Shown here: positions 19,863-47,415 of the stretch, piece by piece | How the letters are laid out: every line of letters starts with the position of its first letter | Position numbering within the stretch: position 1 is the first letter of the stretch | Source: an uncultured Desulfovibrio sp. | GTDB lineage: Bacteria; Desulfobacterota; Desulfovibrionia; Desulfovibrionales; Desulfovibrionaceae | DNA: 55,188 bases | Reading direction: 5' to 3' | Assembly: GCF_944324935.1 (NCBI RefSeq) | Contig: NZ_CALUYG010000016.1 | Coordinates: 1 to 55,188, forward strand | The notes under the pieces: generated by a model | What the model was told of the DNA's origin: nothing | Databases searched by the model: none | Seen by the model: the letters and a program-made list of their open reading frames with translations, nothing else | Made by a program: the position numbers and the translations under genes

Positions 19863-21128
19863 ATGACCCGCAAAGACCGCACCGAAGGCATTTACAGCCG
19901 CCGCGAAGTGCTCGACGAAAGCGAGCGCCGCCAGTACTGCCTGATTCAGCTCAAGGAACTCCTTTCCTACGCCTACCGCTATTCGGAAGACGTCAAGAAG
20001 CGCTTCGACCGCGCGCAATTCAATGTGGAGAAGTTCAAGACCCTCTCCGACATCAAGCATATCCCCATCCTCAAGAAAAAAGAGCTCATCTTCCTCCAGT
20101 CCATGGGCCCGCGGCTGGGCGGCCTGCTGACCAAGGACATCGGGGACTTGAAGCGCATCTTCCTTTCGCCCGGCCCCATCTTCGACCCCGAGGATCGCGC
20201 CGAGGACTACTGGGGCTATACCGAAGCCTTTTATTCCGTGGGCTTCCGGCCCGGCGACGCCGTGCAGAACACCTTCAATTACCAGCTGACGCCCGCCGGC
20301 CTCATGTTCGAAGAGCCGCTGCGCAATCTGGGCTGTGCGGTCATCCCGGCCGGCCCGTCGGACGCCACCACGCAGCTGGACGTCATGCAGAAACTGCGCG
20401 TCTGCGGTTATGTGGGCACGCCGAGCTTCCTCATGCACCTTGCCCAGAAGGCCGAGGAAAAGGGCCTCAACCTGCGCAAGGACCTTTTCCTCGAAGTGGC
20501 CTTCGTCACCGGCGAGCGCCTTTCCGAAAAGATGCGCTCCCAGATGGAAAAGAAGTACGACCTCATCATGCGTCAGGGCTACGGCACGGCGGACGTGGGC
20601 TGCATCGGCTACGAATGCTTCCACAAGACCGGCCTGCACATCGCCAACCGCTGCTATGTGGAAATCTGCCACCCCGACACGGGCATCCCGCTCAAGGATG
20701 GCGAAGTGGGCGAGATCGTGGTGACGGCCTTCAACAAGACCTATCCGCTCATTCGTCTTGCCACGGGCGACCTGTCCTACATCGACCGCAGCCCCTGCGC
20801 CTGCGGCCGCACCAGCCCGCGCCTGGGCAGCATCGTGGGCCGCGTGGACACCACGGCCCGCATCATGGGCATGTTCGTGTATCCGCATCAGGTGGAACAG
20901 GTTATGAGCCGCTTCGAGGAAGTGAAGCGCTGGCAGATCGAAGTCACCAACCCCGGCGGCATCGATGAGATGACGCTCTTCATCGAGACCAGCGGCTTCA
21001 AGCGCGAAGAAGAGCTGCTGCATCAGTTCCGCGAAAAGATCAAGCTGCGTCCCGAGCTGAAGATCCTTGCGCCCGGCAGCCTGCCGCCGCAGATCCGCCC
21101 CATCGAGGACAAGCGTCACTGGGATTAG
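19863..21128 (+). CDS. Phenylacetate-CoA-ligase-like protein lacking the canonical P-loop
   Basis: This 421-residue protein belongs to the PaaK/AMP-forming ligase family. Present are RQGYGTADVGCIGYE (adenine/acyl region), GEVGEIVVT, IRLATGDLSYI and CACGRTSPRLGSIVGRVD, plus the small C-terminal domain. Where active PaaK proteins have SSGTTGxP, this one reads LSPGPIFDPED, so the phosphate-binding loop is altered. It may bind another nucleotide mode, act on an already activated substrate, or be regulatory. A second PaaK-like protein at 27534 keeps the loop. The substrate is unknown. A structured repeat starts at its stop codon. Confidence 0.85.
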   Translation: MTRKDRTEGIYSRREVLDESERRQYCLIQLKELLSYAYRYSEDVKKRFDRAQFNVEKFKTLSDIKHIPILKKKELIFLQSMGPRLGGLLTKDIGDLKRIFLSPGPIFDPEDRAEDYWGYTEAFYSVGFRPGDAVQNTFNYQLTPAGLMFEEPLRNLGCAVIPAGPSDATTQLDVMQKLRVCGYVGTPSFLMHLAQKAEEKGLNLRKDLFLEVAFVTGERLSEKMRSQMEKKYDLIMRQGYGTADVGCIGYECFHKTGLHIANRCYVEICHPDTGIPLKDGEVGEIVVTAFNKTYPLIRLATGDLSYIDRSPCACGRTSPRLGSIVGRVDTTARIMGMFVYPHQVEQVMSRFEEVKRWQIEVTNPGGIDEMTLFIETSGFKREEELLHQFREKIKLRPELKILAPGSLPPQIRPIEDKRHWD

Positions 21129-27406: not shown

Positions 27407-27516
27407 GGCGGACGGCAGCGCCGCCCGGCCAAAATCAGGCGGAAAAACCGCACGTTTTCCGCGAAACGACAGGCCGTATGGTTTGGAGCGCAATGCGTTC
27501 CAAACGGAAGATGCTC
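27407..27516. repeat. Dispersed structured repeat, copy B
   Basis: This is the second copy of the element at 21161-21270. The terminal hairpin TTTGGAGCGC (27482-27491) with GCGTTCCAAA (27495-27504) is kept, although both arms changed relative to copy A: one A-T pair became G-C and another became G-T. The GCGG/CCGC and CGTTT/AAACG hairpins are kept too. It ends 18 bp before the start of the second PaaK-like gene, so it forms its leader. Confidence 0.85.
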
Positions 27517-27533
27517 TACAAGAGGTGTTCGGC

Positions 27534-28817
27534 ATGGCTTACCGTTTTCTTCCCAGCTATACCGCTGATGAACTGGCCCGCATCCAGCTTAACGGCCTGC
27601 GCTTCACCGTGGCGCAGGCCCTGCGCTCTCCCCAGTACCGGGAAAAGCTCGCCGCCTGCGGCGTCGAGCCCGGCGACATCCGCAGTCTGGATGACCTGCG
27701 CCGCCTGCCCACGGTGGATGTGGACGACCTGCGCGCGGGCTATCCCCTGCCCCTCTGCTGCGTACCGGAAGAGGAGATCGTCCGCATCCATGCCTCCAGC
27801 GGCACCACGGGCAAACGCAAGATCCTTGCCTATACGCAAAAGGATATCGAGACCTTCAGTCTCCAGATGGCCCGCTGTTACGAGCTGGCGGGGCTGACCC
27901 CGGCCGACCGCATGCAGGTGGCCGTCGGCTACGGCCTCTGGACGGCGGGCGCGGGCTTCCAGCGTGGCAGCGAGAAGCTCGGCATGCTGACCATCCCCGT
28001 GGGCCCGGGCAATCTGGACATGCACCTGCAATTGCTGCGCGATCTGGGGGCCACCTGCTTCGGAGCCACGGCGTCCATGGCCCTGCTCATGGCCGAGGAG
28101 GTGGAGCGGACGGGCATCCGCGACGAGCTGAAGCTGAAAAAGGTCATCTGCGGTTCGGAGACCCGCAGCGAAAAGATGCGCCTGGCCATCGAGAGCAAGC
28201 TGGGCCTCGAGGCCAGTTACGACATCGCGGGCATGACCGAGATGTACGGCCCCGGCACGGCCATGGACTGCGATGCTCACGAGGGCCTGCACTACTGGGC
28301 GGACCTCTTCATCATCGAGGTGGTCGATCCCGAGACGCTCCAGCCCCTCCCCGTGGGCGAGGTGGGCGAGATGGTGGTGACCAGCCTGCGCAAGGAGGCC
28401 GTGCCGCTGCTGCGCTACCGCACCCACGACCTTTCCCGCCTGCTGCCCGGAGAATGCTCCTGCGGCCTGGGCATGCCCCGCCATGACCGCATCCTCGGCC
28501 GCTCGGACGACATGATCATCTTCCGCGGGGTCAACATCTATCCGGGGCAGATCATGGACGTCATCGGCGGCTATGCCGAACTGGGCGGCGAGTATCAGGT
28601 GGAGCTGCGCCGGGACGAGCGGGCGCTCGATCACATGACGCTCACCGTGGAGCGCGCCCCGCGGGCGTCCGCCGACGGCGACGCCGCCCTGGCAGAACAT
28701 CTGGGCCGCCGCCTGCACAAGGCCATCCTGGCCCGTGTGGACGTGCGCATCTGCGATCCGGGCAGCCTGCCGCGCACCTTCAGCAAATCCAGGCGCGTGG
28801 TGGATCTGCGGCAGTAG
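27534..28817 (+). CDS. Phenylacetate-CoA ligase family protein
   Basis: The 427-residue AMP-forming ligase has complete PaaK motifs: IHASSGTTGKRKILAYT (P-loop), SYDIAGMTEMYGPG, GEVGEMVVTSL, LLRYRTHDLSRLL, CSCGLGMPRHDRILGRSDDMIIFRGVNIYPGQ and a C-terminal domain with FSKSRRVVDL. The expected reaction is acid + ATP + CoA to acyl-CoA, AMP and PPi, probably on an aromatic or indole-type acid. In anaerobes these proteins often occur with indolepyruvate or 2-oxoacid oxidoreductases, and such an operon lies about 9 kb downstream. AGAGGTG precedes the ATG. Confidence 0.93.
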   Translation: MAYRFLPSYTADELARIQLNGLRFTVAQALRSPQYREKLAACGVEPGDIRSLDDLRRLPTVDVDDLRAGYPLPLCCVPEEEIVRIHASSGTTGKRKILAYTQKDIETFSLQMARCYELAGLTPADRMQVAVGYGLWTAGAGFQRGSEKLGMLTIPVGPGNLDMHLQLLRDLGATCFGATASMALLMAEEVERTGIRDELKLKKVICGSETRSEKMRLAIESKLGLEASYDIAGMTEMYGPGTAMDCDAHEGLHYWADLFIIEVVDPETLQPLPVGEVGEMVVTSLRKEAVPLLRYRTHDLSRLLPGECSCGLGMPRHDRILGRSDDMIIFRGVNIYPGQIMDVIGGYAELGGEYQVELRRDERALDHMTLTVERAPRASADGDAALAEHLGRRLHKAILARVDVRICDPGSLPRTFSKSRRVVDLRQ

Positions 28818-29098: not shown

Positions 29099-30001
29099 AT
29101 GTCACACATCCAGCATTTCTCCCGTTTTTTCATCCTGCTGCTCGCCATCTGGCTCGTCGGCCTGCCCCCCGCCGCTCAGGCGGAGACAGGGCCGCGTGAG
29201 GGCCTGCTCATCGTGGCCTTCGGCACCAGCGTGCCCGAAGCCGTGCCCGCCCTGAAAGCTCTTGATAACGATCTCCGGGAGGCCTTCCCCGAGGCCGCCG
29301 TGGAGTGGGCCTACACGTCCCAGATCATCCGTAAGAAGCTGGCCGCGCGCGGCACGCCCGTGGGCGGCATCAGCGACGGTCTGGCGGCCCTTGCCCGCAA
29401 GGGGGTGAAGGTCGTCCGCGTCCAGTCCCTGCACGTCATGCCCGGGGAAGAGTTCAGCGCGCTGGAACGGGCCGTGCTGCTGGACGTCAAGGCCCATCCC
29501 GGCCGCTTCGAGGCCGTCTATCTGGGCCGGCCCCTGCTGGAATCCCGGCAGGATGCCCGCGAAGTCGCGGCGGCCGTCCTGCAAAGCTGCCCCGGGCGCG
29601 CCGCCGGGGAGGGGCTCGTGCTCATGGGCCACGGACAGGCGCACGGCCGGGCCGACCTTGTCTTTGAAGGCATACGCCGGGCCTTTGTCGAGGCGGACGG
29701 CCTGACGTTCATGGCCACGGTGGAGGGCTCGCGCACCTTCGATGACCTTGCGCGGGAGCTTGCCGCCCGCAAGCTGAAGACCCTCTGGCTGCAACCCTTC
29801 ATGGTCGTGGCCGGCGACCACGCCCGCAACGACCTTGCCGGCGAGGACGCGGACAGCTGGGCCTCCCGGCTGCGCAAGCAGGGCTTCCAGGTGAAGACCA
29901 ACCTGCTGGGCCTTGGCGAGATCGCCGGCGTCCGGGCCGTGTTCATCCGGCATGCCCGCGAAACGAAGGACGACCTCACGCGGGAACCGGTCAAGCCGTA
30001 A
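29099..30001 (+). CDS. cbiK: Sirohydrochlorin cobaltochelatase CbiK, exported form
   Basis: The 300-residue class II chelatase inserts cobalt into sirohydrochlorin in anaerobic B12 synthesis. The chelatase core begins at EGLLIVAFGTS. His178 in LMGHGQAHG and His241 in QPFMVVAGDHARND fit the two catalytic histidines of CbiK. A clear signal peptide (hydrophobic core ILLLAIWLVGLPPAAQA, cleavage after about residue 28) directs it to the periplasm, as reported for the periplasmic CbiK of Desulfovibrio vulgaris. That form may deliver metal or handle heme-like tetrapyrroles rather than serve cytoplasmic B12 synthesis. GAGGAGG precedes the ATG, and the gene is under a B12 riboswitch. Confidence 0.94.
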   Translation: MSHIQHFSRFFILLLAIWLVGLPPAAQAETGPREGLLIVAFGTSVPEAVPALKALDNDLREAFPEAAVEWAYTSQIIRKKLAARGTPVGGISDGLAALARKGVKVVRVQSLHVMPGEEFSALERAVLLDVKAHPGRFEAVYLGRPLLESRQDAREVAAAVLQSCPGRAAGEGLVLMGHGQAHGRADLVFEGIRRAFVEADGLTFMATVEGSRTFDDLARELAARKLKTLWLQPFMVVAGDHARNDLAGEDADSWASRLRKQGFQVKTNLLGLGEIAGVRAVFIRHARETKDDLTREPVKP

Positions 30002-30186: not shown

Positions 30187-30849
30187 ATGCCACACACCCG
30201 CCGTATAGGCGTGACCATGCGCGTCGTTCGCTCCGACCACGGCGAGACGCGTGATGCGCTGGCCCGTGACTGGCCTGTCCTGTTTGAAAGGCTCGGACGT
30301 CTGGGAGGCTATGCGCCGGACTGGCTCATGCTGCCCAATACGGGGGAGGCCTGCGTGGCCTTTGCCCGGCGGCAGGGCGTCCGGGGGCTGCTCCTGACCG
30401 GCGGCGACGACCTCGGCGCCACGCCGGACAGGGATGCCACGGAAACGGCCCTGCTCCGCTGGGCCGAACAGGAAGGCCTGCCGGTACTGGGCGTCTGTCG
30501 CGGGGCCCAGCTGCTGGCCTGCCGGGCCGGAGCGGAGCTCGTCCCCCTCGCGCGGGAGCGGCATGTGGCCGCGCGCCATGCCGTCGTCTGGCAGGCGGCG
30601 GATGTGCGCGCCGGCGGCCTGCCCCGTGAAGGCGGAGGGGAGGTCAATTCCTATCATGCCTGGGGACTGGAGGCCGCCCGCCTGCCCGCCTGCCTGATCC
30701 CGCAGGCCATCTGTCCCGAGGACGGCAGCGTGGAAGCATTCGCCCATGCCGTCCTGCCGTGGCGGGGCATCCTCTGGCACCCGGAACGCGAGGCGGCTCC
30801 CGCGCCCCGTGATCTGCCCCTCATGCAGGGGCTGTTCACCCTCAACTGA
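30187..30849 (+). CDS. Class I glutamine amidotransferase, gamma-glutamyl-CDP-amidate hydrolase candidate
   Basis: The 220-residue protein has a single class I amidotransferase domain of the peptidase C26 type. The nucleophile is Cys104 in LGVCRGAQLL and the triad is completed by His198 and Glu200 in LWHPE. LLTGGDDL near residue 70 forms the usual loop. There is no synthase partner domain, so it acts as a hydrolase. In C. jejuni the homologous position is held by Cj1417, which cleaves CDP-L-glutamine to cytidine diphosphoramidate and glutamate. The next gene starts 5 bp after its stop. The ATG at 30187 has only a weak GGGGAA upstream. The assignment to the phosphoramidate pathway rests on the whole cluster. 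Confidence 0.82.
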   Translation: MPHTRRIGVTMRVVRSDHGETRDALARDWPVLFERLGRLGGYAPDWLMLPNTGEACVAFARRQGVRGLLLTGGDDLGATPDRDATETALLRWAEQEGLPVLGVCRGAQLLACRAGAELVPLARERHVAARHAVVWQAADVRAGGLPREGGGEVNSYHAWGLEAARLPACLIPQAICPEDGSVEAFAHAVLPWRGILWHPEREAAPAPRDLPLMQGLFTLN

Positions 30850-30854
30850 GGCCT

Positions 30855-33275
30855 TTGTCCACCATGACGGCATCTTCCACCGGTTCACACCCGACCCCCG
30901 ACACCAAGGCGGAGACCCTGGCCCTGCTGCATGCCCACGCCTTCCCGGTGCCTCCCCTGCTCTATTTTACCCGCGCCCGCTGGACGGCCGAACCGGAGGC
31001 CGTCCTTGCCGAGATCGCGACGCGTTTTCCCGCCGTCTCGCTGGCCGTGCGGTCGTCCGCCCGCGGGGAGGACAGCGGCACGGCGTCCCTGGCGGGCGCT
31101 TTCGACAGCGTGCTGCATGTGCCCTCGCAGGATGTCGCGGCCCTGCGGGGCGCCATCATGAAGGTGGTCTCCCGCTACAGTCATGACGCGGATCAGGTGC
31201 TCGTCCAGCCCATGATCCCCCATGTGGCCATGAGCGGCGTGGTCATGACCCGCACGCTGGATGACGGTTCCCCCTACTATGTCATCAACTATGACGATAT
31301 CTCAGGACGTACGGACACCATCACCAGCGGCAGCGGCATCAGCAAGACGGTCTACATCTACCGGGGGGTAAGGGCGGAATATTTTGATTCGCCCCGTCTG
31401 CGCGCCGTGCTGGATCTGGTGCGGCGGCTGGAAGCCTTCTTTGCCGGCCTGCCGCTGGATGTGGAGTTCGTGGTGGACACGGGGGCCGTGGTGCACCTGC
31501 TGCAGGCCCGCCCCATCGCCGCCGCACGGCACTGGCGCGCCCAGGTGGCGGAGGCCGTTTCCCGTCACATCCGCCATGTGGAGACCTATGCCCGCGACAT
31601 CATGGCCCCGCGCCCGGGGCTGGCGGGCAGGCGGAGCATGCTCGGCGTCATGCCGGACTGGAACCCGGCGGAGATCATCGGTATCACGCCGCGCCCGCTG
31701 GCCATGAGCCTGTACCGGGACATCATCACCCGGCAGGTCTGGCGTCTGGCACGCCGGCAGATGGGTTACCGGGCCCTGCCGCCGGTGGAACTCATGCTTT
31801 CCCTGGCCGGCCGCCCGTACATCGACGTGCGCGCCAGCTTCAACTCCTTTTTGCCCGACGGCATCCCCGATCCGCTGGCCGAGCGTCTGGTGGACGCCTG
31901 GCTGGACCGCCTCGACGCGCACCCCGAATTGCACGACAAGGTCGAATTCGCCATCGTGCCCACGGTGCTGGACTTCGATTTTGACGCCACCTTCCGGGAG
32001 CGCTACCCGGAAACGCTCTCCACCACGGAACACCTGACCTTCAAGGCCGCCCTGCGCCGCCTGACCAGCCGGGCCCTGCGCCCGGCCGGGCAGACGCCCG
32101 CGCCCGGCAGTCTGGAAAAAGCCTTTCAGGATGCCCGCGAGCTGGAGCGGCGGCAACACTCCCTCGCGCTTTCCGCCCTGCCGGCGGGGACGCCGTTCTC
32201 GCTGGCGGCCTCGCTTACCTCCCTGCTGGAGGAATGCCGGGAATGGGGCACGCTGCCCTTTTCCATCGCCGCCCGCCATGCCTTCATGGCGGAAAGCCTG
32301 CTGCGCTCCGCCGTGCGCCGCGAGGCCCTGAGCGAAGAGCGCCTGGCCGCCTTCAAGCGTACCATCCGCACGGTCTCCGGCGAGCTCTCACACGACTTTG
32401 CCGAGGCCGTGCGCCATCCCGAGCGGCGTCCCGCCTTCATGGAACGGTACGGACATCTCCGCCCCGGCACCTACGACTTGCTGGTCCCCTGCTATGCCCG
32501 GCGCGATCTCTTCGCCGACGCCACCCTGTCCCCCGAACCGCCGCCGCCCGCGGCCTTTGCCCTGACGCCCGCCGAGCATGAGGCCCTGAGCCGACTGCTG
32601 GACGAGACCGGGCTGGACTGCACGCCGCCTCATCTGCTGGACTATGCCCGGCGGGCCATTGCCGGCCGCGAATGGATCAAGTTCATCTTCACCCGCCATG
32701 TCTGCGCCGTGCTGGAGACCATCGCCGCCTGGGGCGAACGGCTGGAGCTCGACCGCGAGGCCTGCGCCATGCTGCCGCTGGACGTCATTGCCGGCAGCCT
32801 GCACGCCCCCCTCCCCGATGAGGCCCGCCCCTATTATCTTTCCGTCATTGCGGAACAGCGCCGCCAGCATGAGCTGGCCCGTTCGCTGCGGCTCGCGCCC
32901 CTCATCCGGTCGGAACGGGACGTCTATGTGGCGACCCAGCAGCGCAGCGAACCCAACTTCATCACCCACCGCCGCGTGGAGGCCCCGGTGGCGGTGCTGG
33001 ACGGCGGCGAGGCCCGCGCCGGGGAACTGCGGGGGCACATCGTCTGTATCGAAAGCGCGGATCCCGGCTATGACTGGCTGTTCACCCGCGACATCGCGGG
33101 CCTTGTCACCTGTTACGGCGGGGCCAATTCCCACATGGCCATCCGCTGTGCGGAATACGGCCTGCCCGCCGCCATCGGCTGCGGCGGCATCCTCTACGAA
33201 CGTGCCGGCAAGGCCGGCCTGCTGTTGCTGGACTGCGCCGGAAAACGTATAACTCCCCTGCATGCCGAGGTATGA
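30855..33275 (+). CDS. PEP-synthase-like kinase, L-glutamine kinase candidate (Cj1418-like)
   Basis: The 806-residue protein has the architecture of PEP synthase and PPDK. An N-terminal ATP-grasp domain carries LAVRSSARGEDSGTASLAGAF near residue 65 and VLVQPMI. The middle region is long and variable. The C-terminal swivelling domain has the phosphohistidine His760 in GGANSHMAIRCAEYGLPAAIG. The PEP/pyruvate-binding barrel of true PEP synthase is absent. In C. jejuni the similar protein Cj1418 phosphorylates the amide nitrogen of glutamine, giving AMP and phosphate. I start at a TTG 5 bp after the previous stop; an ATG three codons later (30864) is also possible. The stop abuts the next ATG, so translation is coupled. 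Confidence 0.85.
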   Translation: MSTMTASSTGSHPTPDTKAETLALLHAHAFPVPPLLYFTRARWTAEPEAVLAEIATRFPAVSLAVRSSARGEDSGTASLAGAFDSVLHVPSQDVAALRGAIMKVVSRYSHDADQVLVQPMIPHVAMSGVVMTRTLDDGSPYYVINYDDISGRTDTITSGSGISKTVYIYRGVRAEYFDSPRLRAVLDLVRRLEAFFAGLPLDVEFVVDTGAVVHLLQARPIAAARHWRAQVAEAVSRHIRHVETYARDIMAPRPGLAGRRSMLGVMPDWNPAEIIGITPRPLAMSLYRDIITRQVWRLARRQMGYRALPPVELMLSLAGRPYIDVRASFNSFLPDGIPDPLAERLVDAWLDRLDAHPELHDKVEFAIVPTVLDFDFDATFRERYPETLSTTEHLTFKAALRRLTSRALRPAGQTPAPGSLEKAFQDARELERRQHSLALSALPAGTPFSLAASLTSLLEECREWGTLPFSIAARHAFMAESLLRSAVRREALSEERLAAFKRTIRTVSGELSHDFAEAVRHPERRPAFMERYGHLRPGTYDLLVPCYARRDLFADATLSPEPPPPAAFALTPAEHEALSRLLDETGLDCTPPHLLDYARRAIAGREWIKFIFTRHVCAVLETIAAWGERLELDREACAMLPLDVIAGSLHAPLPDEARPYYLSVIAEQRRQHELARSLRLAPLIRSERDVYVATQQRSEPNFITHRRVEAPVAVLDGGEARAGELRGHIVCIESADPGYDWLFTRDIAGLVTCYGGANSHMAIRCAEYGLPAAIGCGGILYERAGKAGLLLLDCAGKRITPLHAEV

Positions 33276-34064
33276 ATGCAAGCGCTGATCCTTGCCGCCG
33301 GGCGTGGTTCCCGGCTGCGTGAACTGACTGACGACAGGCCCAAATGTCTTGTCTCCCTTGCGGGCAGGCCGCTGCTGCGCTGGCAGTATGACGCCCTGCA
33401 CGCCGCCGGCGCGCGCCAGATCATGGTGGTGCGCGGCTATCTGGCGGAGCGCCTCGTGCCCGAGGCCGCCGGCTTGCCGTCCGGGGCCTTTGCCACGGTG
33501 GACAATCCGCGCTGGGCGCAATGCAACATGCTGGCTTCCCTGCTGTGCGCCGGTCCGTGGCTGGAGACGATCTTTGCCGGCGGCGAGACGGAAGTGGTCA
33601 TCAGCTATGCGGATATCGTCTATCCGGCGGACCATGTGCGCGCCCTGTGCGCCGGCGGCGGCGACAGCCCCGTGGCCATCACCTACGATACGCAGTGGGA
33701 ATCCCTCTGGCGCGTCCGGTTCGCCGATCCGCTGTCGGACGCCGAAAGCTTCGCCTGCCGGGACGGTCTGCTGTGCGACATCGGCCGCAAGCCCTGCGGG
33801 CTGGACGACATCCACGGACAGTACATGGGCCTGTTGCGGCTGACGCCGCAGGGCTGGCGGACCGTTGCCGACGTCTGCCGGGAGCTTGGCGACGCGGTGG
33901 ACCGTACCGATATGACGAACTTCCTCCGCCTGCTCCTGGCGCGCCACGTCCCGGTGGCGGCCGTGCCCGTCCGGGGGCGCTGGTGCGAGGTGGACGATCA
34001 GGACGATCTGCGCGCCTATGAGAGCCGTCTTGAGCAGGGCGGCTGGGAGCATGACTGGCGCTGA
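33276..34064 (+). CDS. Nucleotidyltransferase, CTP:phosphoglutamine cytidylyltransferase candidate (Cj1416-like)
   Basis: The 262-residue protein has the sugar-nucleotidyltransferase fold. The N-terminal signature is ILAAGRGSRLRELTDDRPKCLVSLAGRPLLRW; a metal-binding Asp is in ISYADIVYPADH and another near the end in RWCEVDDQDDL. The -WCEVDxxxDL- ending is typical of CTP-dependent choline-phosphate-type cytidylyltransferases. In C. jejuni Cj1416 couples CTP to glutamine phosphate to make CDP-L-glutamine. Its ATG follows the kinase stop with no gap. On its own it would be annotated as a generic NTP transferase; the cluster makes the specific reading likely. Confidence 0.83.
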   Translation: MQALILAAGRGSRLRELTDDRPKCLVSLAGRPLLRWQYDALHAAGARQIMVVRGYLAERLVPEAAGLPSGAFATVDNPRWAQCNMLASLLCAGPWLETIFAGGETEVVISYADIVYPADHVRALCAGGGDSPVAITYDTQWESLWRVRFADPLSDAESFACRDGLLCDIGRKPCGLDDIHGQYMGLLRLTPQGWRTVADVCRELGDAVDRTDMTNFLRLLLARHVPVAAVPVRGRWCEVDDQDDLRAYESRLEQGGWEHDWR

Positions 34065-34126
34065 GGAGGCGCAGCCTTTCGCATGCGCGCACAGCTTTCT
34101 CAAAGATGGAGCAGGAGGTATCCCGC

Positions 34127-34888
34127 ATGAAACATGGTGATTTTACGGCTCTGGCGGAAAAATACGCCGACTACCGTCCCGGCTATGCGCCCCTGATCGC
34201 CGAGGTCTTCGTCCGCCTGAGCGGACAGGCACAGCCCCGCTGCGTGGATGCCGGCGCGGGTACGGGCATCTGGTCCCGCCAGCTGGCGGCGGCCGGAGCA
34301 CGCGTGGACGCGGTGGAACCCAACGACGCCATGCGCGCGGCCGGACAGCGGCAGAACGGCGCCTGCGCCATCGTCTGGCATGCCGGATCGGCCGAGGACA
34401 GCGGACTGGAAAGCGGAGCATTCGATCTGGCCTGCATGGCCTCCTCCTTCCACTGGCCGGATTTTGACGCCGCCGTGCGGGAGTTCCACCGCCTGCTCAA
34501 GCCGGGCGGCTACTTCATGGCCCTCTGGAATACCCGCTACTATGAATCCAATCCGCTGCTGGTGGAGATCGAAGCGCATCTGCACAGCCTGGCCCCGGAC
34601 ATGCGGCGGGTCTCTTCCGGCCGTTCGGCCTTCTGCAACCAGCTGACGGAACGCCTTGCCGCCCGCCAGGAATTCGACGAAGTCATCTACCTTGAAGGAC
34701 GCCACATCGAGCACCAGAGCCCGCAACGCTACCTGGGCCTGTGGGAGTCCGTCAATGACGTGCGCGTGCAGCTTGGCGAAGAACGGTTCGCCGCCTTTCT
34801 TGCCTATGTCCGGGACAGGACGGCGGATCTGCGGGATATCGAAGCCGAATACCTGACGCGGGCCTGGATCGCCCGCCGGGCGAAGTAA
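34127..34888 (+). CDS. SAM-dependent methyltransferase, phosphoramidate cluster (first copy)
   Basis: The 253-residue class I methyltransferase has motif I VDAGAGTGIWSRQL, the acidic VDAVEPNDAMRAAG (SAM ribose) and HRLLKPGGYFMALWN. It closely resembles the next gene, sharing VDAVEPNDAMRA, HRLLKPG and the ending TRAWIARRA, so the two arose by duplication. In the C. jejuni cluster Cj1419 and Cj1420 occupy this place and are thought to supply the O-methyl group of methyl phosphoramidate. The exact substrate is unproven. I start at the ATG at 34127 because AGGAGG lies ten bases before it. Confidence 0.85.
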   Translation: MKHGDFTALAEKYADYRPGYAPLIAEVFVRLSGQAQPRCVDAGAGTGIWSRQLAAAGARVDAVEPNDAMRAAGQRQNGACAIVWHAGSAEDSGLESGAFDLACMASSFHWPDFDAAVREFHRLLKPGGYFMALWNTRYYESNPLLVEIEAHLHSLAPDMRRVSSGRSAFCNQLTERLAARQEFDEVIYLEGRHIEHQSPQRYLGLWESVNDVRVQLGEERFAAFLAYVRDRTADLRDIEAEYLTRAWIARRAK

Positions 34889-34952
34889 ACGGCACGACTA
34901 CCGGGGTATGCGCTCTGACGACGCCGAAGCGCCCCCTGCCATCGGAGAATCC

Positions 34953-35705
34953 ATGAAAACAACCTGGGACTATACCTCGCTGGCCCAAAGCTACCTCAAG
35001 CGGCCGGACTATGCGCCGTCCGCCCTGCAGGACATCTTCCGCATCGCCGGTCTGCACGCCGGGGATCACGTCTGTGACATCGGCGCAGGCGTCGCCCACC
35101 TCACCCTGCCGCTCGCCCGCTTCGGCTGCCGGGTGGATGCCGTGGAGCCCAACGACGCCATGCGGGCGCTGGGCAGGCAGCGCACGGCGGATCTTCCCGC
35201 CGTCCAATGGTTCGAGGGGACGGGCGAACACACCGGACGCCCCGGAGGACAGTACGACTTCGTCTCCTTCGGCTCCTCCTTCAACGTTTGCGACCGCGCC
35301 GCCGCGCTGGCCGAGACCCATCGCCTGCTCAAGCCCGGCAAATGGTTCGTCTGTCTCTGGAATCACCGGGATTTGCAGGATCCCGTCCAGCAGGAGATCG
35401 AAAACATCATCAAGAAGGCCATCCCCGAATACGGCTACGGCACGCGCCGCGAGGATCAGACAGGCGTCATTCGCGATTCCGGTCTGTTCACGGACATCAC
35501 CCCCGTGGAAGGCGAAGTGCGGCACGTCCAGAGTCCGGCGGAGATCGTGGAGGCCTGGCACTCCCATTCCACCCTGCACCGTCAGGCGGGCGACAAGTTC
35601 GCGTCCATCATCGCGGAGATCGAACAGTATCTTGCCGGGCTCGGCCGGGACGGCATCGCCATCCCCTACACGACGCGGGCCTGGATCGCCCGCCGCGCGG
35701 ACTGA
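34953..35705 (+). CDS. SAM-dependent methyltransferase, phosphoramidate cluster (second copy)
   Basis: The 250-residue class I methyltransferase has motif I CDIGAGVAHLTLPL, then VDAVEPNDAMRALG and HRLLKPGKWFVCLWN. It is a paralog of the preceding gene but differs in the N-terminus and in the substrate region (FGSSFNVCDRAAALAE against MASSFHWPDFDAAVRE), so the two may act on different substrates or form a heterodimer. The ATG at 34953 has CGGAGA upstream. It is followed 7 bp later by the CysC-like gene. Confidence 0.85.
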   Translation: MKTTWDYTSLAQSYLKRPDYAPSALQDIFRIAGLHAGDHVCDIGAGVAHLTLPLARFGCRVDAVEPNDAMRALGRQRTADLPAVQWFEGTGEHTGRPGGQYDFVSFGSSFNVCDRAAALAETHRLLKPGKWFVCLWNHRDLQDPVQQEIENIIKKAIPEYGYGTRREDQTGVIRDSGLFTDITPVEGEVRHVQSPAEIVEAWHSHSTLHRQAGDKFASIIAEIEQYLAGLGRDGIAIPYTTRAWIARRAD

Positions 35706-35712
35706 AACGGCC

Positions 35713-36228
35713 ATGACCGAACGGACAGGACGCGTTTTCTGGATCACCGGCCTCTCCGGCGCGGGCAAGAGCACGCTGGCCCGCGCCCTGCAGGACCGCC
35801 TGTCGCCGTCCATCCTGCTGGACGGCGACGAACTGCGCGCCGTGCTGGGCGCGACGCGCTCCGGCTTCGACCGGCAAAGCCGTCTGGAGCTGGCCGCCAC
35901 CTATGCCCGCTTCTGCAAGCTGCTGGCCGAGCAGGGGCATACGGTCATCATCGCCACCATTTCCCTGTTCCACGAGATCCACGCCTGGAACCGGGAAAAC
36001 CTGCCCGGCTACCGGGAGATCTTTCTGGATGTGCCGGAGAAAGTCCGCCGCCAGCGGGACCCCAAGGGCCTGTATGCCGCGGCGCAGGCCGGCGCCGTGC
36101 GCCAGATGGCCGGAACGGAGACGCCGGTCGACCTGCCGCGGAACCCGCATCTGGTGCTCCACACGGATCGTCTTTCGCTGGAAGACTGCGTGGCGGCGGT
36201 GCTCCGTCTGGCCGCGGAACAGGCCTGA
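35713..36228 (+). CDS. CysC-like kinase, cytidine diphosphoramidate kinase candidate (Cj1415-like)
   Basis: The 171-residue P-loop kinase looks like adenylylsulfate kinase: Walker A GLSGAGKST at residues 13-21, LLDGDELRAVLG, then VIIATISLFHEIHAWNRENLPGYREIFLDVP. No sulfate-activation genes (cysD, cysN, sat) are beside it; it is the last gene of the phosphoramidate cluster. In C. jejuni Cj1415, a protein of similar size, phosphorylates the 3'-hydroxyl of cytidine diphosphoramidate. A general APS kinase cannot be excluded by sequence alone. The gene ends 79 bp before a convergent exporter gene. Confidence 0.82.
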   Translation: MTERTGRVFWITGLSGAGKSTLARALQDRLSPSILLDGDELRAVLGATRSGFDRQSRLELAATYARFCKLLAEQGHTVIIATISLFHEIHAWNRENLPGYREIFLDVPEKVRRQRDPKGLYAAAQAGAVRQMAGTETPVDLPRNPHLVLHTDRLSLEDCVAAVLRLAAEQA

Positions 36229-36307: not shown

Positions 36308-37288
36308 TCAGCGATGCCGTCGCGGCAGATGCGGCAGATGGGGCAGATGCAGCATGGGCCCCACCGCGATGCCCAGCGCCCCCAGGACGACGACGCAGGC
36401 CCCGAGCAGGCTGAGCAGGCCCACGCTGTCCAGCGGATAGGCCGCCGGCCACAGACGGTTCAGCAGCACTTCCAGCACGAGCGAGAACAGCGGCGTGGTC
36501 GCCACGACGGCGCTGACCTTGGCCGCGTGCCAGATGCTCATGGCCTTGGTGAAGGCCCCGTACGCCACGATCGTATTGAGACAGGCAAAAACGAGACAGA
36601 TCAGCTGCACCGCATCCACGCGCAGGATGTCCGCGGGCGTGGCCAGCGGCGCGAGCCCCAGCGCGCAGCAGGGATAGATGACCCGCAGGATGCGCATGGG
36701 CGCAAGATACCGCAGCAGGATCTTCTGTGCCAGTCCGTAACAGGCCCAGACCAGCGCCGCGGACGTCCCCAGCAGCATGCCGAAGGAAAAATCATCGTCC
36801 CCGCCCCAGAGCAGGGCCAGACGCACGTTGAAAAAGAGCAAAAGCCCGACCAGCAGCAGTATGACCCCCACGGCCTGCACCGGCAAAAAGGCCTCCCGCA
36901 GGATGAAGACCCCGCCCAGCAGGAGCAGCACCGGCCCCGCCTGGGCCAGGATCTGACAGGCCGAGGCGCTGAGATAGGCCACGGAAGAATTGAAGAACAC
37001 GAAATTGGCGCCCAGACCGGCCGAGGCCACTAGCAACAGCAGCCAGGTACGCCGGCGGGACGGCGGCGCGGCGGCCGCGGCGACCGGCGCGGACTGCCGG
37101 GGCCCGCGCGACGCATGGACGGCCGGAACGCACCATATCCAGACCGCCGCCACGCAAAAACGCAGCCAGACCAGCGTCACCGCATCCATGACGGGCAGCA
37201 GGTGTTTCACCGCCAGCGGCAAGGCCCCCCAGAACAGCGCCGTCAAAAGCGCCAGCAGCAAGCCCGCACCATTGTTCCCCAGTACCAT
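36308..37288 (-). CDS. EamA/DMT-family transporter
   Basis: The 326-residue protein has ten hydrophobic helices in two EamA repeats (first GAGLLLALLTALFWGALPLAVKHLLP, second FGMLLGTSAALVWACYGLAQKILL). Such proteins export metabolites or carry nucleotide-sugar-like compounds. A Pro/Ala loop of about 25 residues follows TM2, and the tail repeats LHLPHLPHLP. I start at the ATG at 37288, with GGAGG seven bases upstream. It is convergent with the phosphoramidate cluster, so a link to that product is possible but unproven. Confidence 0.88.
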   Translation of the reverse strand: MVLGNNGAGLLLALLTALFWGALPLAVKHLLPVMDAVTLVWLRFCVAAVWIWCVPAVHASRGPRQSAPVAAAAAPPSRRRTWLLLLVASAGLGANFVFFNSSVAYLSASACQILAQAGPVLLLLGGVFILREAFLPVQAVGVILLLVGLLLFFNVRLALLWGGDDDFSFGMLLGTSAALVWACYGLAQKILLRYLAPMRILRVIYPCCALGLAPLATPADILRVDAVQLICLVFACLNTIVAYGAFTKAMSIWHAAKVSAVVATTPLFSLVLEVLLNRLWPAAYPLDSVGLLSLLGACVVVLGALGIAVGPMLHLPHLPHLPRRHR

Positions 37289-37559
37289 ACGGCAGCCTCC
37301 TCCGTCGGTTTGATCCTGACGCCCCGCGCCCTTCCTCCCCGCGGGACGCAAGGCGGCCGCCCTTCCCTCCGGGAGGGCGGCCCCGCTTCCTGGGGTAGGA
37401 AATAGAGGGCACAAGGTCAAGCCTGCCGGGGGAATACGACGCAAAAAGCGCCACGCGGCAAAAGTCAAGCGACTTTCCCGCTTGACTGTTCGGCTGAACA
37501 GTAATCAAATACGGCTTGGCGACCGCTGCGCATACCGCGATCGCAAAGGGTAATCATCT
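37289..37559. other. Divergent region between the EamA gene and the kor operon
   Basis: Besides the kor promoter at 37463-37510, this 271-bp region holds a strong hairpin, GGCCGCCCT (37355-37363) with AGGGCGGCC (37374-37382) plus an inner CCC/GGG. It lies in the leader of the EamA gene and could attenuate its transcription. I see no gene. Confidence 0.5.
37463..37510 (+). promoter_or_regulatory. kor operon promoter with two nested inverted repeats
   Basis: TTGACT (37482-37487) and TCAAAT (37505-37510) are 17 bases apart. AGTCAAGCG (37463-37471) and CGCTTGACT (37479-37487) form a perfect inverted repeat covering the -35. A second one, CTGTTC and GAACAG (37486-37491, 37496-37501), fills the spacer. 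Both look like operator sites for dimeric regulators. Confidence 0.6.
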
Positions 37560-43428: not shown

Positions 43429-46400
43429 ATGCCACAGAAGCTAGCCCGCCAGGCCATGACGCTGGGGCTCAGCTACACGCTGGGCACATTCAACGACAAT
43501 TTTTTCAAGCAGGCCGTCCTTCTGCTTGCCGTAAGCCTGCACTTCAACGACATGCAGTCCTGGGGCACGATCCTCTTTTCGCTGCCCTTCGTGCTCTTTT
43601 CCTCCTGGGCCGGCTGGCTGGCGGACCGCTTCCCCAAGCGCAACGTGGTACTGGCGGCCAAGCTGCTGGAACTTTCCGCCATGCTGGCCGGGGCCTGGGG
43701 GCTGCTCACCCTCAACTGGGGGGGCATGCTGACCATGCTCTTCTTCATGGGTGTCAGCTCGACCCTGTTCAGCCCGGCCCTCAACAGCTCCCTGCCCGAG
43801 GTATTCCCCAGCGCGCAGGTCCCGCAGGTCAACGCGCTGCTCAAGCTCTCCACCACGCTGGCCATCCTGCTGGGCATAGCGCTGGCCGGCGCGGCCCTGG
43901 AATGCCGCTGGCTCGCCACCCTCATTCCCTTCGGGCGCTGGCTGGTCGCCGTGACGGTACTGCTCGTCGCGGGGCTGGGACTCGCCTCCGTGGCCTTCAT
44001 CCCCTTCCGTCCCGCCGCCGCACAGCGGGAAGAGCTCCCTCCCTTCCCGCTGTTCGGGGTCTGGCATTCCGCCGTGGCGCTCCTCCGTCTGCGCCCGCGC
44101 CGGGACATCTTTCTCTGCCTGTGCGCGGACGCCTTTTTCTACAGCCTGTCCGTCCTCGTCCTGCTGGAGATCAATGCCTTCGGCCTTGGTCAGCTCGGCC
44201 TCAGCGCCACACTGACCAGCCTGCTGCCGGGGGCGCTCATGCTCGGCATCTGCGGCGGCGCTCTGCTGACGGCAAGACGGCGGCAGCAGCACTGGCAGCG
44301 CACCGTCCCCGCGGCGACGGCGACCATCGGCATCCTGCTGCTGCTCGTGTCCTGCGTCCCCCATGCGCCGGCGGCATGGCGCTTTGCCCTGCTCTGCCTC
44401 TGCTACGCCGCCATCGGCATCTGCGGCAGCCTCTACATCGTCCCCGTCTCCAGCTACCTGCAACTGCGCCCGGCAGCCGAGGAAAAGGGACGCATCCTCG
44501 GCCTGTGCAACTTCTTCTCCTTCTTTGCCATGCTGCTTGCCGGGGCCTGCTATTCCCCGCTGTCGCTGCTCAGCCCGGCCGCAGGCCAGGCCCTGCTGGG
44601 CGTGATCGCCCTGGTGACGGCGGCCCTGTTCGCCGCCGCCATCGCCCGCCTGCCGCGCCTCGCCGGGCAGGACGATGCCCGTCCCGCCTTCCATCCCGTA
44701 CGCCGCCTGCTGGGGGCCGGCCTCCGGGGACTGCTCTCCCTGCGCTACCGGGTGCGCCTCGAGGGAGAGGATGTCCTCCGTCAGGCCGCCGCCGACGCCC
44801 AGGCGCGCGGACACGGCCTGCTGCTGCTGCCCAACCATCCCGCCTTTGTGGATCCGGTCATCCTCTGCGCCTGGCTTGCCCCGCTGTCGCCGCGCCCCCT
44901 GGCGGACAGACATCAGATCGGCCGGCCCTGGCTGCGCCCGCTGGCGGCCTTCATGCGCTGCATCCCCCTGCCCGACCTGCGTCGGGAAGGCATCGCCGCC
45001 CGCCGTCAGGTACAGGAGAGTCTTGCCCGCTGCACCGCGGCCCTGGAGCAGGGAGAGCATCTGCTCGTCTATCCCTCCGGCACTCTGAGCCATGACGGCC
45101 GCACGCATCTTGGCGGCAACAGCGGAGCCTATCGCCTGCTGCGGGCCGTGCCCGACTGCGTGCCCCTGGTCATTCGCACACAGGGACTCTGGGGCTCTTC
45201 CTTCAGCTGGGCCGATGGCGCGCCCGTGCTGGGCCGCGCCCTGCTGCGGGGCCTGCTTGCCCTGCTGCGCAACGGCATCTTTTTCCTCCGCCGGCGCGAG
45301 GTACGCATCTCCTTTGTCCGGCCCGCGCCCCTGCCGCGCCCCGAAGAGGGCGTGGCGGCGCTCAATGCCCTGCTGGAAGATTGCTACGCCGCCGCCCCGG
45401 ATGTGCTGCGCCGTGTGCCGTTCTCCCGGCACGAGGCGGCGCTCCCCGACCAGCCGCTGGCGCTCCGCGAATGCCATAGCGACTGCCGGCCGCCGGCGGC
45501 CCTGGATGAAGATGCCCGCCTGAAGGTCATGCGGCTGCTGGCCGGGCTCTCCCCCCTGCGGCCCCGGGCGGAGGAACTGCGACCGGAACAGCGGCTGGAC
45601 GCCGACCTCGGGCTGGACAGCCTGGCCGCCGTCGACCTGAGCCTGCAACTCGCCGCCCTGTCCGGTCAGGACGCTGTGGAACCAGGCGATCTGCTGACCG
45701 TCAACGACTGTCTGCTGGCCGCCTGCGGGCAGCTTGTCCCGCGTTCCGCCGCGCAGGAAAACGCCGCGCGGGAGCAGGCGGCACGCTGGTCGGCCTGCCT
45801 GCGGGCCCTGCCCGAACGGCCCCTCGTTCTGCCGCGGGCGACCAGCCTGCCGCTGACCATCCTGCGCCAGCTCCGCACCATGCCGTCACGGCCCCTGCTG
45901 GCCGACGGCGGGCGGATGCTGACGGCAGGCGACGTCTGGACGCGCGCCGTCGTCCTCTCCCTCTTCCTGCGCCGGCGCTTCGGCAGCGGCCGGCATCTCG
46001 GCATCATGCTGCCCGCCTCCGCCGCAGCGGCCGTCGCCTGGCTCGCGGTGCTGCTCTCGGGCAATACGCCGGTCATGCTCAACTGGACGACCGGCGTCCG
46101 CAACCTGCGGCATGCGCTGTCGCTGACGCATGTCCACCATCTGATCAGCGCCCGCGCGCTGCTCCGCCGCCTCGACGAACGCGCGCTCGACAAGGCCGTG
46201 GCCGAAAGCGGAGCCCACTGGCTGCTGCTGGAGGAAGCGGCGGCCGCCCTGCCGCTCAGCCTGCGGCTGGAAGGCCTCCTGCGGGCCCGTCTCTCGCTGC
46301 TCGGCTGGGAAAGCTGCGCCGTGGGACAGGCCGTCTCGCCACAGGCGGCCATCCTTTTCACCTCCGGTTCCTCATCCTCGCCCAAGGGCGTGCCGCTGAC

Positions 46401-47415
46401 GCACGACAACATCCTGGCCAACTGCCGCGATGTGGCCGGCGTGCTGGCCCTGAACAGCCACGACGTCATGCTGGCCATGCTGCCGCCCTTCCATTCCCTG
46501 GGCCTGACGGGCAATATCGTGCTGCCGCTCTGCTTCGGCATGCCGGTGGTTTACCATGCCAACCCCGCCGAAGGAGGACGGCTTGCCGCACTCTGCCGCC
46601 GCTGGCGACCCACCCTGCTGGTCACGCCGCCAAGCTTCCTCGACGGGTTGCTGCGCCAGGCCCGCCCCGGCGATCTGGAGTCCCTGCGGCTGGGCTTTGT
46701 GGGCGCTGAGGCCTGCCCGCAGCGTCTGTACACGGAGTTTGCCCGCCAGACCGGCGGAGGTCTGCTGTGCGAAGGCTACGGCGTGACCGAATGTTCCCCG
46801 GTCATCAGCGTCAACCTGCCGCAGGATCCCCACCCCTGCACCATCGGACGCCCCCTGCCCTCGGTGGACGTGGCCGTGGTCTCCCCGTATCCGCCCTACC
46901 GGCGCCTCGCGACCGGCCAGACAGGCATGCTGCTCGTACGCGGCCCCAATGTGTTCGCCGGCTACCTCGCCTCGGAGGACAGCGCCCCCGCCGATCCTTT
47001 CGTCATGCTGGACGGCCGGCGCTGGTACTGCACCGGCGATCTCGTCCGGGCGGACGCCACAGGCCTGATGAGCTTTGCCGGGCGGCGGGAACGCTTCCTC
47101 AAGCTGGGCGGGGAGATGATCTCCCTGCCGCAGCTGGAAGAGACGCTGCGACGACATTTCACCGCGAAGGACGGCGACGGCCCCTGCCTTGCCGTGGACG
47201 CGATCTATACGGCGGATCAGCCGCAACTGACGCTCTATACCACGCTGCCCCTGAGCTGCGCCGAGGTCAATGCCGTCCTGCAGGCGGAGGGCTTCTCCGG
47301 TCTGCACATGCTGCGCCGGGTCCGCCGCCTTGCCGCCCTGCCGCTGCTCGGTTCCGGCAAGATCGACTATGCCCGTCTGCGTACGGAGGGGAACGACAAC
47401 ACATCCGACGCATGA
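43429..47415 (+). CDS. Four-domain fusion: LplT-like MFS, PlsC acyltransferase, acyl carrier domain, AMP-forming acyl ligase
   Basis: The 1328-residue protein joins the lysophospholipid-repair system in one chain. Residues 1-410 form an MFS transporter starting TLGTFNDNFFKQAVLLL, as in LplT. A PlsC domain follows, with the HX4D motif at His470/Asp475 (NHPAFVD) and YPSGTLS near 548. Around residue 731 an acyl-carrier-like site (DADLGLDSLAAVDL, Ser731) is inserted. The rest is an AMP-forming ligase (FTSGSSSSPKGVPLTH near 978, YGVTECSPV, then YCTGDLV). E. coli has LplT and Aas as separate proteins without a built-in carrier domain. AAGGA precedes the ATG. Confidence 0.9.
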   Translation: MPQKLARQAMTLGLSYTLGTFNDNFFKQAVLLLAVSLHFNDMQSWGTILFSLPFVLFSSWAGWLADRFPKRNVVLAAKLLELSAMLAGAWGLLTLNWGGMLTMLFFMGVSSTLFSPALNSSLPEVFPSAQVPQVNALLKLSTTLAILLGIALAGAALECRWLATLIPFGRWLVAVTVLLVAGLGLASVAFIPFRPAAAQREELPPFPLFGVWHSAVALLRLRPRRDIFLCLCADAFFYSLSVLVLLEINAFGLGQLGLSATLTSLLPGALMLGICGGALLTARRRQQHWQRTVPAATATIGILLLLVSCVPHAPAAWRFALLCLCYAAIGICGSLYIVPVSSYLQLRPAAEEKGRILGLCNFFSFFAMLLAGACYSPLSLLSPAAGQALLGVIALVTAALFAAAIARLPRLAGQDDARPAFHPVRRLLGAGLRGLLSLRYRVRLEGEDVLRQAAADAQARGHGLLLLPNHPAFVDPVILCAWLAPLSPRPLADRHQIGRPWLRPLAAFMRCIPLPDLRREGIAARRQVQESLARCTAALEQGEHLLVYPSGTLSHDGRTHLGGNSGAYRLLRAVPDCVPLVIRTQGLWGSSFSWADGAPVLGRALLRGLLALLRNGIFFLRRREVRISFVRPAPLPRPEEGVAALNALLEDCYAAAPDVLRRVPFSRHEAALPDQPLALRECHSDCRPPAALDEDARLKVMRLLAGLSPLRPRAEELRPEQRLDADLGLDSLAAVDLSLQLAALSGQDAVEPGDLLTVNDCLLAACGQLVPRSAAQENAAREQAARWSACLRALPERPLVLPRATSLPLTILRQLRTMPSRPLLADGGRMLTAGDVWTRAVVLSLFLRRRFGSGRHLGIMLPASAAAAVAWLAVLLSGNTPVMLNWTTGVRNLRHALSLTHVHHLISARALLRRLDERALDKAVAESGAHWLLLEEAAAALPLSLRLEGLLRARLSLLGWESCAVGQAVSPQAAILFTSGSSSSPKGVPLTHDNILANCRDVAGVLALNSHDVMLAMLPPFHSLGLTGNIVLPLCFGMPVVYHANPAEGGRLAALCRRWRPTLLVTPPSFLDGLLRQARPGDLESLRLGFVGAEACPQRLYTEFARQTGGGLLCEGYGVTECSPVISVNLPQDPHPCTIGRPLPSVDVAVVSPYPPYRRLATGQTGMLLVRGPNVFAGYLASEDSAPADPFVMLDGRRWYCTGDLVRADATGLMSFAGRRERFLKLGGEMISLPQLEETLRRHFTAKDGDGPCLAVDAIYTADQPQLTLYTTLPLSCAEVNAVLQAEGFSGLHMLRRVRRLAALPLLGSGKIDYARLRTEGNDNTSDA

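What the first reader, a model, noticed from the sequence alone, without database searches (positions are those of the whole stretch)
30187..36228. Complete phosphoramidate-biosynthesis gene cluster outside Campylobacter
Seen: six co-directional genes encode a lone class I amidotransferase, a PEP-synthase-like kinase without the PEP barrel, an NTP transferase, two paralogous SAM methyltransferases and a CysC-like kinase, several with coupled starts. Known: C. jejuni Cj1415-Cj1418 convert glutamine, ATP and CTP to 3'-phospho-cytidine diphosphoramidate, and Cj1419/Cj1420 are the linked methyltransferases for O-methyl phosphoramidate on the capsule. Inferred: this organism makes the same activated P-N compound. 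Separately, each gene would be annotated as ordinary metabolism. An N-phosphorylated glycan or metabolite in a probable sulfate reducer would be unexpected.
Basis: partly seen in the sequence, partly recalled or inferred. Interest (0 to 1): 0.95.

Follow-up and report, generated by a model that had tools for sequence, protein, structure and literature searches.

The report
Phosphoramidate (P–N) pathway in a sulfate-reducer
A Desulfovibrio-like sulfate reducer carries, side by side, versions of the four genes that are predicted to build the rare phosphorus–nitrogen tag described as special to Campylobacter capsules, and the same gene set, whole or in large part, turns up in many other bacterial groups and two archaeal draft genomes, so this odd chemistry is likely far more widespread than papers suggest.

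Summary
Window 30187-36228 carries six co-directional, tightly packed genes: amidohydrolase, PEP-synthase-like kinase without barrel, nucleotidyltransferase, two paralogous methyltransferases, APS-kinase-like kinase. The inference of a Campylobacter-type cytidine-diphosphoramidate pathway is well supported. NCBIfam's gamma-glutamyl-CDP-amidate hydrolase is the best model for the amidohydrolase, though below cut-off (80 vs 250 bits), and 41 of 41 linked homologues given match it. Kinase, amidohydrolase and nucleotidyltransferase lie together in 70 of the 80 best named-genome loci, 51 also with the APS-kinase-like gene; NTase-kinase and amidohydrolase-kinase fusions exist. So it is neither unique to this organism nor Campylobacter-specific.

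The parts
30187..30849 (+). GAT: lone class I amidohydrolase, predicted gamma-glutamyl-CDP-amidate hydrolase (Cj1417 role); C104-H198-E200 present
   Evidence: NF045546 E 2.1e-22, 80.2 bits, cut-off 250; 41 of 41 linked GATs given match NF045546; C104, H198, E200 invariant in 72 sequences
30855..33275 (+). KIN: PPDK_N + mobile phosphohistidine domain without PEP barrel, predicted L-glutamine kinase (Cj1418 role); TTG start; H760 in GGANSHMAIR
   Evidence: (NF004508 875 bits, cut-off 501)
33276..34064 (+). NTP: LicC/COG1213-like nucleotidyltransferase, predicted CTP:phosphoglutamine cytidylyltransferase (Cj1416 role); R13 and D113 conserved
   Evidence: (LicC 1jyk E 2.4e-9); paralogue at G000:C10, 50% identity
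34106..34888 (+). MT1: SAM methyltransferase; close relatives (60-69%) beside the cluster in L022, L025, L030, L033, L035
34908..35705 (+). MT2: paralogous SAM methyltransferase (39% to MT1); nearest relative among the loci compared is the single MT of L024 (61%)
35713..36228 (+). APK: APS-kinase-like P-loop kinase, predicted cytidine diphosphoramidate 3'-kinase (Cj1415 role)
   Evidence: (NF004041 167.4 bits, cut-off 127)

Best explanation
The six genes form a compact operon-like cluster whose four core enzymes are predicted to turn glutamine, ATP and CTP into 3'-phospho-cytidine diphosphoramidate, an activated P–NH2 donor that is likely passed to a surface glycan by TagF-like transferases encoded elsewhere in the genome. 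Inferred steps, by analogy with C. jejuni: KIN phosphorylates the amide nitrogen of glutamine; NTP transfers CMP from CTP onto it; GAT cleaves off glutamate and leaves CDP-NH2; APK adds the 3'-phosphate. MT1 and MT2 would add methyl groups, most likely on the phosphoramidate oxygen (weakest step). Shown here: the genes, their family matches, their conserved linkage and fusions, and a second locus on contig C10 of the same genome with an NTP paralogue and a protein orthologous to the one that follows the cluster in Desulfovibrio sp. ZJ369, whose model is TagF-like. TagF-type enzymes attack the beta-phosphorus of a CDP-linked phosphate (recalled), the same bond that would have to be attacked in the CDP-amidate donor.
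Confidence: 0.8

Rival explanations
1. The cluster makes the same activated P-N nucleotide, but it ends in a small molecule (a secreted phosphoramidate metabolite or modified nucleotide) and not on a glycan.
For: No glycan gene sits in the window cluster; its neighbours are CbiK and an EamA-type exporter.
Against: In relatives the neighbourhoods are glycan-rich: representatives of recurrent neighbour groups match DegT, NeuB, NeuC, NeuA, formyltransferase, flagellin and CDP-glycerol glycerophosphotransferase families; the linked candidate transferase has a TagF-like model.
Confidence: 0.12
2. The kinase acts on another amide or carboxamide and the set makes a different CDP-activated N-phosphoryl compound; the Campylobacter pathway is only a cousin.
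For: GAT is below its equivalog cut-off; five of the six loci with an NTase fused to KIN also hold a free one; lone KINs exist, for example on a Cupriavidus taiwanensis plasmid beside a TPP enzyme and an aminotransferase, with no GAT or NTase in its (incomplete) gene table.
Against: The amidohydrolase is conserved with the kinase and best matches a gamma-glutamyl-CDP-amidate hydrolase model, which fits glutamine as the phosphorylated amide.
Confidence: 0.1
3. Coincidental neighbours from ordinary metabolism (PEP synthase, GMP-synthase-like amidotransferase, CysC, generic methyltransferases).
For: Each protein alone carries a generic Pfam label.
Against: Linkage in 70 of 80 loci from many groups, fusions, and specific model matches.
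Confidence: 0.01

Closest known systems
Campylobacter jejuni MeOPN donor pathway Cj1415-Cj1418
   Same: Same four enzyme types encoded side by side; published steps: glutamine kinase (PMC6429109), CTP:phosphoglutamine cytidylyltransferase, gamma-glutamyl-CDP-amidate hydrolase and CDP-amidate kinase (names as printed in PMC11202532); pathway passage in PMC11800397
   Different: Different phylum; GAT only distantly matches the model that bears the Cj1417 function's name; no capsule or transferase genes in the cluster; C. jejuni proteins not aligned here
C. jejuni methyltransferase pair Cj1419/Cj1420
   Same: Two adjacent SAM methyltransferase genes beside the four core genes
   Different: Homology not tested; function not assigned in C. 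jejuni (PMC11800397)
TagF / TarL CDP-alditol phosphotransferases (PF04464 and relatives)
   Same: Predicted fold of the linked candidate transferase; some other cluster-linked proteins do match PF04464
   Different: The ZJ369/C10 family has no Pfam match at E <= 1 (ZJ369 member) and only 12 relatives, query included, at E <= 0.001 among the 7,997 candidates scored; its predicted donor carries -NH2, not an alditol
Phosphoramide-bearing LPS of Xanthomonas campestris (PMC8042644, PMC3655273) and Shewanella sp. MR-4 (PMC3210612)
   Same: Published P-N substituents on surface glycans outside Campylobacter (passages)
   Different: Their biosynthesis was not examined here; whether those strains carry this gene set was not tested

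Membership tests
Cytidine-diphosphoramidate donor pathway (Cj1415-Cj1418 type) | Glutamine-kinase-type protein: PPDK ATP-grasp plus mobile His domain, no PEP barrel | tested here: met
   PPDK_N + PEP-utilizers only; NF004508 875 > 501 bits. That NF004508 includes Cj1418, and that Cj1418 has this architecture, is recalled
Cytidine-diphosphoramidate donor pathway (Cj1415-Cj1418 type) | gamma-Glutamyl-CDP-amidate hydrolase | tested here: inconclusive
   NF045546 is the best model, but 80 bits against a cut-off of 250; 41 of 41 linked GATs given match it
Cytidine-diphosphoramidate donor pathway (Cj1415-Cj1418 type) | CTP:phosphoglutamine cytidylyltransferase | tested here: inconclusive
   LicC-like by sequence; R13 and D113 conserved in 76 sequences, K23 present in the window but not in 93% of them; substrate not readable from sequence
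Cytidine-diphosphoramidate donor pathway (Cj1415-Cj1418 type) | APS-kinase-like CDP-amidate kinase | tested here: met
   NF004041 167.4 > 127 bits; APS_kinase E 2.5e-30. Family only; substrate not tested
Cytidine-diphosphoramidate donor pathway (Cj1415-Cj1418 type) | The four genes lie together | tested here: met
   window; 51 of 80 loci with all four, 70 of 80 with KIN, GAT and NTP
Cytidine-diphosphoramidate donor pathway (Cj1415-Cj1418 type) | Direct sequence relationship to the C. jejuni proteins | not tested
   No Campylobacter chromosome was reachable; no protein named as Campylobacter was in the lists returned
Cytidine-diphosphoramidate donor pathway (Cj1415-Cj1418 type) | Enzyme activities and P-N product | not testable with these tools
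   needs biochemistry and 31P NMR
O-methyl phosphoramidate (MeOPN) capsule modification system | Phosphoramidate transferase genes in the cluster | tested here: not met
   None among the six genes or the nine flanking proteins scanned; candidates lie on C10 and C38
TagF-type CDP-alditol phosphotransferase (for the C10 protein, tested on its ZJ369 orthologue) | TagF-like GT-B fold | tested here: met
TagF-type CDP-alditol phosphotransferase (for the C10 protein, tested on its ZJ369 orthologue) | Pfam PF04464 profile match | tested here: not met
   no family at E <= 1, so it is called TagF-like and not filed as a PF04464 member

The most novel reading that the evidence does not exclude
Phosphoramidate glycan decoration is a widespread bacterial, and partly archaeal, surface chemistry: one mobile donor module of four enzymes, found in whole or large part in about thirteen phylum-level groups, feeds lineage-specific TagF-fold phosphoramidoyltransferases. 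This module would account for the orphan phosphoramide groups reported on Xanthomonas and Shewanella LPS and would supply the missing transferase chemistry of the field.
Probability: 0.55. Interest if true: 0.9.

Novelty: new member of a known kind. Interest (0 to 1): 0.8.

Why it matters
A 2022 review calls the glutamine kinase C. jejuni-specific (PMC9561416, passage), and a 2019 review says that the modification had only been identified in Campylobacter (PMC6429109, passage). The counts here contradict the first at the gene level and hand over many sources of the enzymes outside Campylobacter. They also point to a testable class of phosphoramidate transferases; a 2026 paper says that the enzymatic details of the capsule decoration are currently unclear (PMC13276843, passage). 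P-N bonds are acid-labile and easily lost in routine glycan work-up (recalled), which could explain why they have been missed.

Tried and rejected
Viral scan: 13 pattern matches in IMG/VR, none a relative of KIN. Plasmids: 14 of 72,556 records carry a KIN relative at E <= 1e-20, all under 60% identity; five of the 14 were read. Of these five, Azospirillum, Vibrio, Smac51 and Roseovarius have a GAT- and an NTase-type gene right after KIN (in Smac51 both are annotated 'hypothetical'; identified as L025); the Cupriavidus table lists neither, but PLSDB tables are incomplete.

Campylobacter bridge: I could not reach a Campylobacter chromosome. I then only scanned ten divergent KINs against NCBIfam, which does not replace a direct alignment.

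Transferase candidates dropped: a pair with a weak, sub-cut-off Sulfotransfer_3 match (L030) and a family with a weak, sub-cut-off GDSL match (L067) did not compare with the PF04464 group; radical-SAM/B12 proteins near the L025 cluster were seen and not compared further. The own-genome C11 PF04464 protein sits in a LicC/LicA-like locus (by my reading of its frames) and is not claimed for this pathway. Families A and B did not compare with each other directly (probability 4.6) although each did with C (99.1 and 97.6); family D compared with B (90) but not with A or C (0.2 each). A relative of family A models as well on UDP-GlcNAc 2-epimerases as on TagF, so only the ZJ369/C10 family is called TagF-like.

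Literature: ten searches; several lists were capped (for example 25 of 2,041, 40 of 64). None of the titles and abstract openings listed, nor the passages I read, reports the donor pathway outside Campylobacter; subscription papers are mostly not held, and five key papers were absent. Helicobacter homologues of Cj1419-Cj1422, the methyltransferases and transferases, are in print (PMC6247508, passage).

Full report
WHAT IS THERE. Window 30187-36228 holds six genes on the + strand: GAT (220 aa), KIN (806 aa, TTG start), NTP (262), MT1 (260), MT2 (265) and APK (171), with gaps of 5, 0, 41, 19 and 7 bases. Upstream lies a CbiK gene (29099-30001), downstream a convergent EamA transporter (36308-37468, minus strand). 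The genome (G000, 2.71 Mb, 99.8% complete) has one KIN and a dsrA well over its cut-off, so the host is a sulfite/sulfate reducer; the named match of highest identity is Candidatus Desulfovibrio gallistercoris, which keeps the CbiK-GAT-KIN order (CbiK 89%, GAT 81%, KIN 87% over residues 3-653, where its frame ends).

FAMILY EVIDENCE. KIN has the PPDK ATP-binding domain and the mobile phosphohistidine domain but no PEP barrel and scores 875 bits on NF004508 (cut-off 501). GAT's best NCBIfam model is NF045546, gamma-glutamyl-CDP-amidate hydrolase, at 80 bits; the cut-off is 250, so it is a relative of that family and not a certified member. Of 41 linked GATs given to (of 72 listed), 41 match NF045546, and it is the only model matched by all; which member gave the best E (3.4e-39) is not shown. 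NTP belongs to the LicC-like cytidylyltransferases. APK passes NF004041. C104, H198 and E200 of GAT are invariant in 72 sequences; H760 of KIN is conserved in at least 93% of 81; R13 (at least 93%) and D113 (invariant) of NTP in 76. A published relative lists an arginine, a lysine and an aspartate as active-site residues (PMC12275187, passage); by my reading they correspond to R13, K23 and D113, and K23 does not reach 93%.

DISTRIBUTION. In the family sample 16 of 149 genomes, the own one included, carry KIN over the cut-off. By my reading of the record titles the 80 span about fifteen phylum-level groups, thirteen of them with at least one locus that also has GAT and NTP, including two Woesearchaeota MAGs in which APK was not found near KIN. 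Of the 80, 70 have GAT and NTP on the same strand within 6 kb of KIN, 51 also APK, 13 also an MT1-like gene; 7 have none of them. Four of those seven sit on contigs that end within 2.6 kb of KIN on one side; L034, L070 and L096 do not. In the host's family, 13 of 13 longer regions have GAT and NTP (one with NTP on the other strand), 12 of 13 APK and 6 of 13 an MT. Fusions: NTP-KIN in L087, L089, L097, L099, L100 and L101, GAT-KIN in L047.

MECHANISM. Known in C. jejuni: Cj1415-Cj1418 make CDP-phosphoramidate 3'-phosphate from glutamine, ATP and CTP (PMC11800397, passage). I infer the same order here. Transfer by a TagF-like enzyme is inferred from fold, synteny and co-occurrence. Methylation is the least secure step: MT genes go with only part of the clusters, MT1-type in some and MT2-type in others, the window having both, and in C. 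jejuni no function is assigned to the pair. Gene presence does not prove the product: MeOPN was seen in 9 of 13 gene-positive Campylobacter strains examined (PMC3907429, passage).

LITERATURE. Reviews describe the kinase as C. jejuni-specific or the modification as known only from Campylobacter (PMC9561416, passages; PMC6429109, passages). Phosphoramide groups on LPS are in print for Xanthomonas campestris and Shewanella sp. MR-4 (passages). None of the titles, abstract openings and passages that I saw in ten searches, some with capped lists, reports the donor pathway in Desulfovibrio or the other groups; most subscription papers are not held.

VERDICT. Observation confirmed; interpretation supported, with the donor pathway very likely as a homologous system and probable in function, the transferase identification moderate, the methylation weak, the acceptor unknown. 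As a kind of system it is a new member of a known one; its breadth and the transferase lead are what would surprise a specialist.

Noticed in passing
L110:7204-8687 (unnamed congener G137): Decayed cluster: GAT is followed by one open frame that joins part of the N-terminal region of KIN to APK; the rest of KIN, NTP and the methyltransferases were not found there. A 727-aa candidate transferase remains next to it.
   Followed up: partly
L087, L089, L097, L099, L100, L101: Kinase fused to an N-terminal nucleotidyltransferase; five of the six (all but L097) also list a free NTase, so some clusters may hold two NTases.
   Followed up: no
L105 (Cupriavidus taiwanensis plasmid): A KIN relative (35%) near a TPP-dependent enzyme, an aminotransferase and nifK, with no GAT or NTase in the incomplete gene table: possibly a different use of the kinase.
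   Followed up: no
L048:18973-19770 and similar loci: Several clusters sit near flagellin, NeuB, DegT and formyltransferase genes, as in flagellar glycosylation islands.
   Followed up: partly
L123:4594-10252 (G000:C11): A frame that reads like fused LicC/LicA, a PF04464 protein and a YidC-like/phosphatase-like membrane protein in a row (names from my reading, except PF04464): looks like another CDP-linked surface decoration locus.
   Followed up: no
window 43429-47415: One 1328-aa frame combines MFS transporter, acyltransferase and AMP-binding ligase domains.
   Followed up: no
window 19863-21128 and about 27480-28817: Two phenylacetate-CoA-ligase-like AMP-binding proteins in the same window (the second by my reading only).
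   Followed up: no
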